A stretch of 26,766 nucleotides of DNA from Lachnospiraceae bacterium UBA7784. GTDB lineage: Bacteria; Bacillota; Clostridia; Lachnospirales; Lachnospiraceae. The translations under genes were made by a program, and so were the position numbers. The stretch lies in the NCBI GenBank assembly GCA_002480925.1, contig DLDA01000038.1, forward strand, positions 1 to 26,766, given 5' to 3'. Positions 4,756-26,766 of this stretch are shown here, one piece after another (position 1 is the first letter of the stretch; each line of letters begins with the position of its first letter). A model generated the notes under the pieces. That model saw only the letters and a list, made by a program, of their open reading frames with translations, did no database searches and was not told the DNA's origin.

Positions 4756-5322
4756 ATGAGATCAGGAACAAAGGAAAGCAGGTTTTCACAGATCATCATT
4801 GCGGTGCTTGCGATCATACTTGGAGTTTTATGTGTCGCCAGGCCGGATAAGGCGGCGGGCTTTATAGTAAGCGCAGTCGGCCTTATAATACTCATAGTAG
4901 GGATCGTGATGATAGTTTCAAAGCTTAAGGATAATAATCTGAGAGTTCCAGCTATTATCCTTGGCGCAGTCATAGCTACTATAGGAATCTTTATCTTCAC
5001 GCATCCGGATCAGACAATATCTCTTATCTTCATAGCCTTTGGCGTGCTTCTTGTAGCAGATTCCATTCAGGGGATAACCTCAAGCATGGTAATAAAGGAA
5101 GCCGGGGGTCCATGGAGCATATCCCTTACTATGGCTCTTATTAGCTTCGTATTCGGTGTGATCTGCTTTATGGCTCCGAAGTTCTTTCCGTCGCTTAGCT
5201 TTATGATCATAGGAATAATGCTTATCTACGATGGAGTCACATCCATTTATTCGTCTATAAGGGCGGGCAGAGCGGATAAGTCAGTTGTCGATTCTCATAT
5301 AGTTGATGAAAAGGACATCTGA
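4756..5322 (+). CDS. DUF308/HdeD-like multi-pass membrane protein
   Basis: 188 residues, mostly hydrophobic, with about six predicted membrane segments arranged as repeated units of the form hydrophobic-G-hydrophobic-P (LGVLCVARPDKAAGF, IGIFIFTHPDQTISL, FGVICFMAPKFFPSL). This internal repetition is typical of the DUF308/HdeD family. HdeD is linked to acid resistance in Escherichia coli, but the function in Firmicutes is not known. AAGGAGG precedes the ATG and the gene starts 14 nt after the lipoprotein stop, so it is very likely in the same operon. The short hydrophilic C-terminus (about residues 170-188) is probably cytoplasmic. Confidence 0.8.
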   Translation: MRSGTKESRFSQIIIAVLAIILGVLCVARPDKAAGFIVSAVGLIILIVGIVMIVSKLKDNNLRVPAIILGAVIATIGIFIFTHPDQTISLIFIAFGVLLVADSIQGITSSMVIKEAGGPWSISLTMALISFVFGVICFMAPKFFPSLSFMIIGIMLIYDGVTSIYSSIRAGRADKSVVDSHIVDEKDI

Positions 5323-23896: not shown

Positions 23897-24042
23897 GATT
23901 TTCTCCTTTTTACAATGGAATGCTACTTATCTATTATATCGTAGATTTACCAGATAAACTAAATACCTGTGGAAAAATTTGCTGCGATATTGTATGATAA
24001 TACATAAACGCGATGTTTTATCTTTTTCTGGAAGGAGATTTA

Positions 24043-25593
24043 ATGGAACACAAACAAAAGGTCATCGTGATCGACTTCGGCGGTCAGTACAATCAGCTTG
24101 TCGCGCGCCGTGTCAGAGAAAATCATGTTTACTGCGAGATCACATCATATCGGACCCCTCTGGACAAGATCAAGGAGATGGACCCTATGGGTATCATCCT
24201 GACCGGAGGCCCTAACAGCGTATTTGAAGAGGATTCGGCCACGGCTCCCAGGGAACTCTTTGAGCTTGGCGTGCCTGTTCTTGGGCTCTGCTATGGTGCC
24301 CAGCTTATGATGCATGTTTTAGGCGGCAGTGTGGACCATGCTCCGGAAAGAGAGTACGGCAAGACTCCGCTTACTGTCGATGATGAGAAAAGTCCGCTTT
24401 TTGCCGGTCTGCCAGAGAATTCTATTGTATGGATGAGCCATAATGATTATATAAAGACTCCGGCAGCAGGCTTTCATATCACATCCCATACTGCTAATTG
24501 TCCGGTGGCGTCTGCTGAGGATCCATCGAGAAATCTCTACGCTATCCAGTTCCATCCTGAGGTCCTCCATACCGAATATGGAAAGGATATCCTTAAGAAC
24601 TTCGTAATAGATGTATGCGGCTGCTCAGGCGACTGGCAGATGTCCTCATTTGCCGAGAAGACTATAAAGGAACTTAAGGAAAAGATAGGCGACGGAAAGG
24701 CCCTCTGTGCCTTATCAGGCGGAGTGGATTCCTCTGTTGCGGCTGTACTCCTTTCAAAGGCCATTGGAAAGAACCTGACTTGCGTGTTCGTAGATCACGG
24801 TCTTTTACGTAAGGACGAGGGAGATATGGTATCCCGTGTATTCGGTCCGGAGGGTCCTTATGAGCTGAACTTTGTCAGGGTAGATGCTAAGGATCTTTTC
24901 TACAGCAAGTTGGCTGGTGTCACAGAGCCAGAGAAAAAGAGGAAGATCATCGGGGAAGAGTTCATCCGCGTCTTCGAGCATGAAGCCAAGAAGATCGGGA
25001 AAGTAGACTACCTGGTTCAGGGAACCATCTATCCTGATGTCGTAGAATCAGGGCTCGGCGGCGAATCGGCCACGATCAAGAGTCACCACAATGTAGGAGG
25101 ACTGCCTGACTATGTAGATTTCAAGGAGATAGTAGAGCCGCTTAGATACCTGTTCAAGGACGAGGTCAGAGCCGTGGGCCTTCATCTGGGTATCCCTCGT
25201 GAGCTTGTGATGAGACAGCCTTTCCCGGGACCGGGTCTTGGTATCCGTATCATAGGTGACGTCACAGAGGAAAAGGTAAAGATCGTCCAGGACGCCGATG
25301 CCATCTTCCGTGAGGAAATGGAGAAGGCAGGCCTCAACAAGACTGCCGGCCAGTACTTCGCAGCCCTTACTAATATGCGTTCAGTCGGCGTCATGGGTGA
25401 CGAGAGAACTTATGACTATGCGATAGCGCTCCGCGCCGTAAACACCGTAGACTTCATGACCGCCGATATAGTTGAGATTCCTTACGAGGTTCTAAAGACG
25501 GTGACCAGCCGTATCATAAACGAGGTCTCTCATGTAAACCGCGTGCTCTACGATATCACGAGCAAGCCGCCAGGAACGATAGAGTTCGAGTGA
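24043..25593 (+). CDS. guaA: GMP synthase (glutamine-hydrolysing)
   Basis: 516 residues from ATG 24043, with GAAGGAG upstream; a possible ATG 30 nt earlier has none. The N-terminal class I glutamine amidotransferase has the nucleophile cysteine in GLCYGAQ (about residue 83) and His/Glu in QFHPEV (about 170). The ATP-pyrophosphatase domain has [12 protein letters not shown]. The GMP synthase C-domain shows [15 protein letters not shown] and ends in [13 protein letters not shown]. It converts XMP to GMP. The 3' end of guaA is a known integration site for genomic islands in Firmicutes, which fits the change in character of the DNA just downstream. Confidence 0.97.
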
Positions 25594-25664
25594 GAAAAAT
25601 ATTATAATATATTTGCATAAATATATAATAAAACTTTATATAATATCAACATAGAAAAACATAG

Positions 25665-25697
25665 AAAGCCATGAGAATAAAGTTCTCATGGCTTTTT
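25665..25697 (+). terminator. Rho-independent terminator of guaA
   Basis: AAAGCCATGAGAA at 25665-25677 pairs perfectly with TTCTCATGGCTTT at 25683-25695 around a TAAAG loop; the stem itself ends in T, extended to 25697. The 70 nt between guaA and the stem are very AT-rich and hold nothing else recognised. Confidence 0.93.
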
Positions 25698-25858
25698 GTC
25701 ACAATAGCATAAGTTTATTCGCGACAGCACCAGTTTTGCCTGTGGAATTACAGATGATTTTCACAATAGATACATTTACAGATTTACCGCACCATATAAG
25801 CATTAGTATGGTGCATGGTATTTTCACCATACGCATGAAAAAAGTCGGACGGCACCAA
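25694..25858 (-). repeat. Left half of a 62-bp repeat array (three units, minus strand)
   Basis: Read on the minus strand, three units each start with a box like TTGGTGC and have, exactly 26 nt later, a box like CTATNGTGAAAAT. First boxes (plus coordinates): 25852-25858 TTGGTGC, 25789-25795 ATGGTGC, 25727-25733 CTGGTGC. Second boxes begin at 25832 (GTATGGTGAAAAT), 25769 (CTATTGTGAAAAT) and 25707 (CTATTGTGACAAA), going leftward. Periods are 63 and 62 bp. The DNA between boxes is variable. The outermost unit runs up to the guaA terminator. No convincing protein-coding gene was identified here. Confidence 0.8.
25789..25814. repeat. Short hairpin inside the left repeat half
   Basis: GCACCATA at 25789-25796 pairs with TATGGTGC at 25807-25814 around a 10-nt loop. 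The left arm is itself the TGGTGC box of the middle left unit; an alternative pairing of ATGGTG (25808-25813) with CACCAT (25825-25830) is also possible. Confidence 0.6.
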
Positions 25859-25861
25859 AAT

Positions 25862-25889
25862 TCTGGAAAATTATTGGTACTATTCCAGA
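25862..25889. repeat. Small hairpin near the array axis
   Basis: TCTGGAA at 25862-25868 pairs with TTCCAGA at 25883-25889 with a 14-nt loop. It lies beside the axis (about 25866) around which the two repeat halves are mirror-imaged, although its own centre is at about 25875. Confidence 0.55.
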
Positions 25890-26059
25890 CGGTTTGAATC
25901 TATAGTGAAAATATCAGCTTGGCAGGAAAGTTTTGTTGGTGCTGTCGTGTGTTGCACAGGCCTATAGTGAAAATATCTGCTCAGCCAGTGAAATCTTTTG
26001 GTGTTGCATTGAGTCGGATTGACCTGTTGTGAAAATCAATGGCATATATTGGATTTGTG
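25874..26059 (+). repeat. Right half of the 62-bp repeat array (three units, plus strand)
   Basis: Three units on the plus strand with first boxes at 25874-25880 TTGGTAC, 25936-25942 TTGGTGC and 25998-26004 TTGGTGT. Second boxes begin at 25900 and 25962 (both CTATAGTGAAAATATC) and 26024 (CTGTTGTGAAAATC). The period is exactly 62 bp and the distance between the box starts is 26 nt in every unit. The first two units also share GCT and GC further on. A fourth unit at 26060 is not recognisable. Bases 26060-26134 show no gene or clear signal. Confidence 0.82.
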
Positions 26060-26134
26060 TATATCTGGCTAAAGTGGACCGGATATGATATTATTCTATC
26101 ATAACTGGCAATACTAGCTTACATGGGAAATAGT

Positions 26135-26338
26135 ATGTCTGAATAAGATTTGAACTCGCTTGAAAACAGAGTTCATGAGCTTGAAAAAGAGAATCGGTAT
26201 CTGAAAAGTCTGCTTGATAAAGCAGGAATTTCTTATGCTTTGCCACAACCATCGCATTCGGATGATGCTATGCAGGCTGATCAGGGGAGCAGAATTGTCC
26301 ATGTTACGATTTCAAATATAGATATAGGTGATATATGA
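26135..26338 (+). pseudogene. Coiled-coil leader fragment with a stop at codon 4 (helicase/TOTE-primase-like N-terminus)
   Basis: ATG 26135 reads M-S-E, then TAA at 26144-26146, then continues in frame as DLNSLENRVHELEKENRYLK and SLLDKAGISYALPQ. The heptad pattern of Leu and charged residues is a coiled coil. From memory it resembles the N-terminal leader of large clostridial DEAD/DEAH helicases and TOTE-type primase proteins, in which a segment like DQGSRI precedes the catalytic domain; here the frame ends soon after DQGSRIVHVTIS. A TTG at 26150 could restart a 62-residue peptide. The TGA at 26336-26338 overlaps the next ATG. The best reading is a remnant whose catalytic part is gone; a functional small coiled-coil peptide is the alternative. 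Confidence 0.5.
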
Positions 26339-26766
26339 AACAGGAACACAAACGTCTTATAGACAAGAGCATAGAGGCATTTATTATGGGGCTGGAGGTC
26401 TATAATAAGCCTACAATCAGGTACAGGGTTGAGGGATATGAGCCGCTTACGAATGAGCAGATAAGGATGAAGTATTCGCCTGAGGTGGCAGAGAAGCTTA
26501 TACAGCAGGCGAATGAAATAGATGTGCTCAGCAGTACATATGCTTCAGACAAGTTTGCCATAAATATCCGGCAGAATCTGTATATTACCAAAAAGAAGGA
26601 TGAGGCAGATTTTAAGGTATCAATAGAAAACGGATCTGATAATAAAGTTGCCATCGTAAAGGAACTTAAGGATCCGGCGGACACTCATAAATATACATTC
26701 AATACTGTTATCACTGCCATTAGAGAAAAAATGGCGAAGAATAATGAGGCTTCATCAGTTTGTGTG
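26335..26766 (+). CDS. DUF3644-like protein lacking its central segment, 3' end outside window
   Basis: 144 residues visible, running off the window end. The N-terminus (LIDKSIEAFIMGLEVYNKPT then IRYRVEGY) and the later part (EPLTNEQIRMKYSPEVAEKL, FAINIRQNLYITKKKDEADF, VKELKDPADTHKYTF) match DUF3644-domain proteins as I remember them. In those, about 100-110 residues lie between the two parts, including NAWELMLKA and an RNTSTH-type motif. Here RVEGY joins directly to EPLTNEQ in frame. The missing part would hold the Rx4H residues typical of HEPN-like nucleases, so the product is probably inactive (inference). Translation is coupled to the preceding leader by an ATGA overlap. Confidence 0.68.
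   Translation, partial: MKQEHKRLIDKSIEAFIMGLEVYNKPTIRYRVEGYEPLTNEQIRMKYSPEVAEKLIQQANEIDVLSSTYASDKFAINIRQNLYITKKKDEADFKVSIENGSDNKVAIVKELKDPADTHKYTFNTVITAIREKMAKNNEASSVCV

What the first reader, a model, noticed from the sequence alone, without database searches (positions are those of the whole stretch)
25694..26059. Mirror-symmetric array of six degenerate 62-bp units behind guaA
Three units on the plus strand and three on the minus strand are arranged about an axis near 25866: matching second boxes at 25832/25900, 25769/25962 and 25707/26024 give midpoints of 25866, 25865.5 and 25865.5. Every unit has a TTGGTGC-like box exactly 26 nt before a CTATNGTGAAAAT-like box, while the DNA between is variable. 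A 62-63 bp period is about six helical turns, so all boxes would face one side of the helix. This looks like a two-box binding site repeated for a multimeric DNA-binding protein: a transposase or integrase end array, an iteron-like origin, or an operator array. I know of no named element with this layout.
Basis: seen in the sequence. Interest (0 to 1): 0.8.

Follow-up and report, generated by a model that had tools for sequence, protein, structure and literature searches.

The report
Opposed binding-site arrays beside guaA
Behind the guaA gene of a Lachnospiraceae-type bacterium lie two head-to-head rows of a two-part DNA site, kept intact while the DNA between its parts drifted to random, on a stretch of DNA that moves between species; it looks like a docking platform for an unknown DNA-binding protein of a mobile island that is now mostly in ruins.

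Summary
Six units (three per strand) have box 1 (TTGGTGC-like) 26 nt before box 2 (CTATNGTGAAAAT-like), at 62-63 bp pitch, head-to-head about 25866. An unsupervised repeat score beats all 500 dinucleotide shuffles (131; shuffle maximum 112). Between units the boxes are 82-84% identical, the spacers 28-29% (chance 27%): boxes and geometry were kept while the rest decayed. No Rfam match, no RNA-fold signal.
The array was found in six assemblies (five of one genus, one of another). Arms vary from 2 to 4 units, so exact 3+3 symmetry is incidental; the opposed orientation holds in all five where both arms are visible. Over the array the window matches four of the five relatives at 97-98% and the fifth (G012) at 88%, yet guaA is 81% (G002) and 68% (G316) identical; the jump lies at the guaA stop codon. 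guaA 3' ends are a known island site, and tyrosine integrases sit there in same-genus species. So the array rides on horizontally spread DNA at the guaA end of an island whose next genes are broken. Most likely: a protein-docking platform of that island, for recombination or transcription; I weakly favour the former. The protein is unknown.

The parts
24013..25593 (+). guaA (GMP synthase); its 3' end is the left boundary of the horizontally spread block
25594..25664 (.). A+T-rich intergenic stretch behind guaA, part of the spread block
   Evidence: over 25594-25693 97/100 identical to G002 and 94/99 to G316, but 68/100 to G012, although guaA differs
25665..25695 (.). 13-bp perfect hairpin (terminator-like); its T-run overlaps the outermost box 2
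25695..25733 (-). unit L3 (outermost, minus strand): box 1 25727-25733 (CTGGTGC), box 2 25695-25707 (CTATTGTGACAAA)
25757..25795 (-). unit L2: box 1 25789-25795 (ATGGTGC), box 2 25757-25769 (CTATTGTGAAAAT)
25820..25858 (-). unit L1: box 1 25852-25858 (TTGGTGC), box 2 25820-25832 (GTATGGTGAAAAT)
25874..25912 (+). unit R1: box 1 25874-25880 (TTGGTAC), box 2 25900-25912 (CTATAGTGAAAAT)
25936..25974 (+). unit R2: box 1 25936-25942 (TTGGTGC), box 2 25962-25974 (CTATAGTGAAAAT)
25998..26036 (+). unit R3: box 1 25998-26004 (TTGGTGT), box 2 26024-26036 (CTGTTGTGAAAAT)
26041..26134 (+). conserved right flank; one promoter-like match at 26075-26102, overlapping a TATGATA/TATCATA dyad (26084-26103, seen by eye)
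   Evidence: 26041-26203 is 158, 158 and 159 of 163 identical to G002, G010 and G008; promoter-like sites in the region 5 found, 3.0 expected from shuffles
26135..26338 (+). truncated 5' start of a TOTE-type primase-helicase gene, with an in-frame TAA after three codons in all four genomes that show it
   Evidence: frame translation; a 50%-identical relative carries the AEP-TOTE domain; the fragment itself has no Pfam match
26335..26766 (+). PDC-S19 (candidate defence)/DUF3644-like frame that skips about profile positions 36-150; homology ends near 26745, where an IS-like repeat begins; contig end

Best explanation
The feature is a DNA-level docking platform: two opposed tandem arrays of a bipartite (39-bp) recognition site at a pitch of about six helical turns. 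Each unit would bind one copy (or one dimer) of an element-encoded protein, so that 2-4 copies line up on each arm and the arms face each other. It lies in the guaA-proximal end of an island that enters at the 3' end of guaA and has spread between species recently. My committed guess for its job is an accessory (arm-type) assembly site for the island's recombination or excision machinery; control of the island's first transcript is nearly as likely. Shown: array, constraint on boxes over the time in which the units diverged, opposed arms, copy-number variation, horizontal spread, boundary at the guaA stop. Inferred: that a protein binds, that it is island-encoded, and the recombination role. 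In this genome the island is a ruin and no island-type tyrosine integrase was found, so the platform is probably no longer used here.
For: Array far above shuffles; boxes 0.82/0.84 and spacers 0.28/0.29 identical between units, chance 0.265. Same array with opposed arms in other assemblies. guaA alone is 81% (G002, 1495 bp) and 68% (G316, 1069 bp) identical to the window, the array 337/347 and 340/347; in ungapped 50-base steps window-G316 share 13-41 in guaA (39 in the last step), then 45 and 49 after the stop; window-G002 share 33-49 (46 in the last step), then 47 and 50. Tyrosine-integrase genes lie behind guaA in G001 and G006 (Pfam) and, by shared sequence, G005. In G008 other DNA follows guaA directly; in G012 the array is preceded by a relic matching 15 of 18 bases of the guaA 3' end. 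Literature: streptococcal ICEs and Tn5801-like islands enter the 3' end of guaA (PMC4701971, PMC4844618; passages). The array lies about 100 bp from the guaA end, whatever DNA follows on the right.
Against: Both arms lie on the same side of guaA, whereas in a lambda-type attachment site (recalled) the arms flank the crossover point. I saw no integrase gene beside the array in any assembly, and the host's only Phage_integrase match at E<=1e-5 sits among housekeeping-like genes (named by eye) and looks Xer-like. None of 17 guaA-downstream control regions has the array, so DNA entering at guaA does not need one. No second guaA-end copy was found right of the array in the stretches read. Between recent copies, variable columns are not significantly rarer in boxes (3 of 120) than in spacers (10 of 227; P=0.55, G012 left out of that count). 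G012 is more diverged (293/333) and its right arm is degraded.
Confidence: 0.38

Rival explanations
1. Operator or enhancer array: a regulator binds in phase on both arms and controls the transcript that starts to the right (the TOTE-type gene and what follows).
For: Single-locus sites suit a local regulator; the array ends about 40 bp before a promoter-like match at 26075-26102; array, flank and gene start travel together in four genomes.
Against: Promoter-like matches are no more frequent than in shuffles (5 against 3.0, sd 1.7). 29 loci around TOTE-type genes in other Lachnospiraceae genomes hold no R1 site at E<=1 (about 1.5 kb on each side where the contig allows; 38 of 397 genomes had a match, the window genome included). 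In G316 and G012 the array persists without that promoter and gene start.
Confidence: 0.3
2. Ends of a transposon brought together without cargo (a miniature element): three transposase sites per end, facing outward.
For: Repeated transposase sites at both ends are typical of Tn7/Mu-like elements (recalled); the array is flanked by a 5-bp direct repeat ATGGC at 25688-25692 and 26039-26043, the only two ATGGC between 25601 and 26100.
Against: One array locus per array-bearing genome; the near-identical block extends past both outer ends; the outer ends are poor inverted repeats (by eye); a 5-bp repeat within a few bases is not very rare by chance; TniQ 0 of 14 genomes, although its control was silent too.
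Confidence: 0.12
3. Replication origin or partition site (iteron or centromere-like) of the island.
For: Paired iteron arrays exist in plasmid systems (recalled).
Against: No rep or par gene noticed beside the array; units of 62 bp with two boxes are unlike short iterons (recalled); no DNA match to 25594-26340 at E<=0.01 in 72,556 plasmid or 50,697 phage records.
Confidence: 0.1
4. A non-functional old tandem duplication, or structured RNA.
For: Surrounding genes are broken; copy numbers drift; the whole 347-nt strand folds better than shuffles as DNA (z -2.72), as any inverted arrangement would; no excess conservation of boxes among recent copies.
Against: Spacers at chance identity with boxes at 0.82-0.84 point to selection in the past; each arm alone folds no better than shuffles as RNA (z 1.51 and -0.26); no Rfam match at gathering scores; no consensus structure in the unit alignment.
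Confidence: 0.1

Closest known systems
Arm-type sites of tyrosine-integrase attachment regions (lambda and Tn916/Tn5801 class, recalled; integration at the 3' end of guaA as in Tn5801 and ICE_SmiB6_guaA, PMC4844618 and PMC4701971)
   Same: Repeated protein-binding sites close to an attachment site; guaA 3' end as boundary; integrases behind guaA in G001 and G006 carry an Arm-DNA-bind_4 domain
   Different: Sites here are 39-bp bipartite at 62-bp pitch, in two opposed arms on one side of guaA; no integrase linked
Multi-site transposon ends (Tn7/Mu-like; recalled)
   Same: Several transposase sites per end, opposite orientation at the two ends
   Different: No cargo, no transposase seen, single locus, no convincing terminal inverted repeats
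Phased operator/enhancer arrays and iteron/centromere arrays (recalled)
   Same: Helically phased repeats that load several protein copies
   Different: Longer unit, two boxes per unit, opposed arms of changing length, no linked rep, par or regulator gene seen
REP-like palindromic repeats behind guaA (G465, L203:2130-2332)
   Same: Repeats in both orientations behind guaA in a relative
   Different: 97-nt units with 14-bp internal stems and other sequence; no R1 site there

Membership tests
Arm-type sites of an integrative element at guaA | Left boundary of the foreign DNA at the 3' end of guaA | tested here: met
   Identity jump at the stop codon in three pairwise comparisons of window, G002 and G316
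Arm-type sites of an integrative element at guaA | Tyrosine integrase gene in the same element | tested here: not met
   None seen among ORFs of 100 aa or more beside the array (by eye); one Phage_integrase match in the host assembly, Xer-like by context. The assembly is 97.66% complete in 54 contigs, so a gene in a gap is possible
Arm-type sites of an integrative element at guaA | Repeat of the guaA end at the other end of the element | tested here: inconclusive
   None to the right in W, L038, L039, L040, L072, which are cut by contig ends; a relic copy lies left of the array in G012
Arm-type sites of an integrative element at guaA | Integrase binds the boxes | not testable with these tools
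   needs footprinting
Transposon ends (Tn7/Mu-like) | More than one genomic copy, or copies at different sites | tested here: not met
   One array locus in each of six genomes: profile in G000, G012, G316 (G012 also has two weak single hits), DNA search in G002, G008, G010. Directly behind guaA in the three where that side is intact (window, G002, G316)
Transposon ends (Tn7/Mu-like) | Linked DDE transposase or TniQ | tested here: inconclusive
   TniQ 0 of 14 genomes, but the 14 control genomes were silent as well; DDE transposases not searched systematically
Structured RNA | Fold better than shuffles, Rfam match or covariation | tested here: not met
Iteron origin / centromere | Linked rep or par gene | tested here: inconclusive
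   None noticed by eye among ORFs beside the array; no family search for rep or par was made and contigs are cut
CRISPR array | Near-identical repeats with unique spacers in one direction | tested here: not met
   Conserved boxes of 7 and 13 nt only, two directions

The most novel reading that the evidence does not exclude
A previously undescribed kind of cis-acting nucleoprotein platform: two opposed, expandable arrays of one 39-bp bipartite site at a six-turn pitch, carried as a unit on mobile DNA at guaA and serving as the control centre of a family of guaA islands.
Probability: 0.25. Interest if true: 0.65.

Novelty: new variant of a known kind. Interest (0 to 1): 0.42.

Why it matters
If a single island-encoded protein loads onto both arms, this is a compact, sequence-defined model for how opposed, phased site arrays organise a recombination or regulatory complex, with natural arm-length variants (2 to 4 units) ready for comparison. 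It also shows a stretch of largely non-coding DNA moving between Lachnospiraceae species and genera with a sharp boundary at the guaA stop codon, a handle on island traffic at this hot spot.

Tried and rejected
1. Exact pattern search with a 26-nt gap in 145 genomes: mis-specified by me (26 is start to start; the gap is 19), so its zero is no evidence.

2. A Xer/dif-like 28-bp dyad TCTGGAA...TTCCAGA at 25862-25889: rejected; its axis (25875.5) is not the array axis (25866), and a 7-bp dyad of this kind is expected by chance (my estimate, no call).

3. RNA: no Rfam match at gathering scores in the window, arms fold like shuffles, no consensus structure.

4. Tie to TOTE-type genes: 38 of 397 family genomes have a match, the window genome included; 29 loci (L075-L103) were scanned with profile R1, 0 with a site at E<=1.

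5. Viral origin: 18 viral contigs with one match each, no two neighbouring profile hits in them; 3 contigs with the paired pattern, none with an R1 site at E<=0.1; no relative of the TOTE fragment. Phage and plasmid records: none.

6. Wider distribution: the pattern scan of the genome collection gave 58 loci; profile R1 confirmed arrays in 6 of 58 (five assemblies), one more had a weak single hit (L147), 51 none at E<=0.1. L178, a Lachnospiraceae contig among them, was read and is a chance match. The pattern finds close relatives only.

7. Family sample: 38 of 397 genomes have a hit at E<=0.1; 3 are arrays, 35 carry one or two hits, about what chance gives (0.1 x 397). Order sample: 3 of 392 at E<=0.001: the window genome, G012 and one single hit (G338); this draw overlaps the family one.

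8. Guess that DNA entering at guaA generally carries arrays: 17 control regions, unsupervised score with 20 shuffles per window: 15 at z 3.9 or less; G094 5.1 (no repeat family of this kind); G465 9.7, explained by unrelated 97-nt palindromic repeats. The score alone is therefore not specific for this array; the profile finds 0 sites in the 17 loci. The same score in shifted windows gave 8.8 and 9.8 for the window and G002.

9. A second weight matrix over 861,703 bases of other fetched loci gave 21 hits at score 5 or more, no two of them 40-140 bp apart; the window has six, all in the array.

10. Papers: search listings only for 62/63-bp repeat phrases (three unrelated organelle papers), for arm-type sites, for opposed arrays (none) and for TOTE terms (only general primase papers listed). 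These searches do not show that such an array is not in print.

Full report
What is there. The window is a whole contig (G000:C50, 26,766 bp, of a 1.83-Mb assembly of 54 contigs). guaA ends at 25593. A perfect 13-bp hairpin follows at 25665-25695, and the array begins inside its T-run. Scanning with the two boxes gives six units, three per strand, box 1 to box 2 always 26 nt start to start, pitch 62, 62 on the plus and 63, 62 on the minus strand. The stated midpoints are correct.

Is it more than chance? A score that knows nothing of the boxes (one 45-mer and its five best non-overlapping partners on either strand) gives 131 in 25694-26059, against 104.35 +- 2.06 and a maximum of 112 in 500 dinucleotide shuffles; its six positions are the six units. 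Between the six units box 1 is 0.82 and box 2 0.84 identical on average, the two spacers 0.29 and 0.28, and composition alone predicts 0.265. I set the box limits after seeing them, which inflates the box figures somewhat; but spacers at chance level with fixed spacing show that the units are old and that only boxes and geometry were kept. That is the signature of selected binding sites.

DNA, not RNA or protein. No Rfam family reaches its gathering score in the window; the right arm folds worse than most shuffles (z 1.51) and the left arm like them (z -0.26); the unit alignment has no consensus structure. A period of 62 is not a multiple of three, and no ORF of 80 aa or more lies in the array. 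The 347-nt strand as DNA folds better than shuffles (z -2.72), which the opposed arrangement alone can explain.

Where else? DNA search of 145 genomes, own and relatives, and of all 13 genomes of the genus gives five with the array: the window genome, G002, G008, G010, G012 (5 of 13 in the genus). Profile R1 (13 units, sequence only) in 397 family genomes finds arrays in the window genome, G012 and G316, the last from another genus. A pattern for two successive units over the genome collection gives 58 loci, of which R1 confirms 6 from five assemblies. Equal contig lengths identify these as G002 = RUG335, G008 = RUG096, G010 = SUG1701, G012 = LCO1 and G316 = RUG055. That RUG names denote rumen metagenome assemblies is recalled. 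More diverged arrays could have been missed. No viral, phage or plasmid relative was found.

Arm lengths vary. The window has 3+3, G002 4+3, G012 3+2 with a degraded continuation, G010 at least 1 plus 4 (one with a poor box 1), G316 three units plus one with a 21-nt deletion on the guaA side and 3 on the other; G008 is cut by its contig end. Thus exact mirror symmetry is not a design constant; head-to-head orientation is, in all five genomes where both arms can be seen.

The block moves. Over the array the window is identical to G002 at 337/347, to G316 at 340/347, to G010 at 232/239 and to G008 at 94/96 positions; G012 is more distant, 293/333. guaA alone is 81% identical to G002 (1495 bp) and 68% to G316 (1069 bp). 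In ungapped 50-base steps window-G316 share 13-41 in guaA (39 in the last step), then 45 and 49 after the stop; window-G002 share 33-49 (46 in the last step), then 47 and 50; the lowest value probably reflects a gap. The jump lies at the guaA stop codon. G464, G465 and G466, of the genus of G316, have different DNA behind guaA, judged by eye. G011, in the window's genus, has similar intergenic DNA but no array. A chimeric assembly of G316 is not excluded, but the jump within the window's own genus makes the same point.

guaA is an island site here. In G001 and G006 an integrase gene with Phage_integrase and Arm-DNA-bind_4 domains lies behind guaA, and G005 has the like of G001. In G008 other DNA follows guaA directly and the array is on another contig. 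In G012 the array is preceded by a relic matching 15 of 18 bases of the guaA end, with an ORF6N-domain gene beyond. Papers report elements in the 3' end of guaA: streptococcal ICEs whose direct repeats are exactly the gene's 3' end (PMC4701971, passages) and Tn5801-like islands (PMC4844618, passages).

Right of the array. The window, G002, G008 and G010 share a flank to about 26204 and the start of a gene that resembles TOTE-type primase-helicases: the closest relative found is 50% identical over this stretch and carries the AEP-TOTE domain. The gene start has an in-frame TAA after three codons in all four and breaks off at or near one base in G008 and G010, later in the window and in G002. 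In the window it is followed by a PDC-S19/DUF3644-like frame that, judged from two models, skips profile positions 36-150 and stops matching at residue 137, where a repeat found also at the ends of contigs C24 and C48 begins. The DNA beyond the shared part differs in all six assemblies. The island is a ruin.

How it may work. Shown: opposed arrays of a bipartite site that was constrained, at one locus per genome, on DNA that spreads with a boundary at guaA. Inferred: an island-encoded protein docks on each unit. I weakly prefer an accessory role in the island's recombination (position about 100 bp from the attachment end, independence from what follows). Against this, both arms lie on one side of guaA, no integrase was seen beside the array, the host's only Phage_integrase match at E<=1e-5 is Xer-like by context, and 0 of 17 other guaA-downstream loci have an R1 site. 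An operator role is nearly as likely. Transposon ends and origin are less likely. Among recent copies, variable columns are not significantly rarer in boxes (3/120) than in spacers (10/227; P=0.55, without G012), so present-day function is not demonstrated.

Verdict. Real, unusual, and partly explained: mobile DNA with a docking platform for an unknown protein. New variant of a known kind, moderate interest; higher if the partner protein is found.

Noticed in passing
window 26135-26338: Start of a TOTE-type primase-helicase gene with an in-frame TAA after three codons, the same in four genomes: the gene was probably broken before the block spread.
   Followed up: partly
window 26335-26766: PDC-S19/DUF3644-like frame with an internal gap of about 115 profile positions, invaded near 26745 by an IS-like repeat that also ends contigs C24 and C48 of the same assembly.
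   Followed up: partly
window 25688-25692 and 26039-26043: A 5-bp direct repeat ATGGC flanks the array, also in G002; it could be a target duplication or chance.
   Followed up: no
L037 (G012:C31) about 4868-4961: Palindromic repeat between a guaA-end relic and the array; related-looking GCGAAGCGGA repeats lie behind guaA in G465 (L203:1906-2332).
   Followed up: partly
L006 after 261 (G008) and L005 after 465 (G010): Both genomes leave the common block at almost the same base (after GGTATCTGA) into different sequences that both begin with TGT-like letters, as if mobile elements had entered or deleted at one spot.
   Followed up: no
L192 (G000:C24) and L038 (G010:C3): A similar gene (by eye; no family search) lies right of the block in G010 and next to an IS-like contig end in the window genome, so contigs C50 and C24 may be neighbours.
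   Followed up: no
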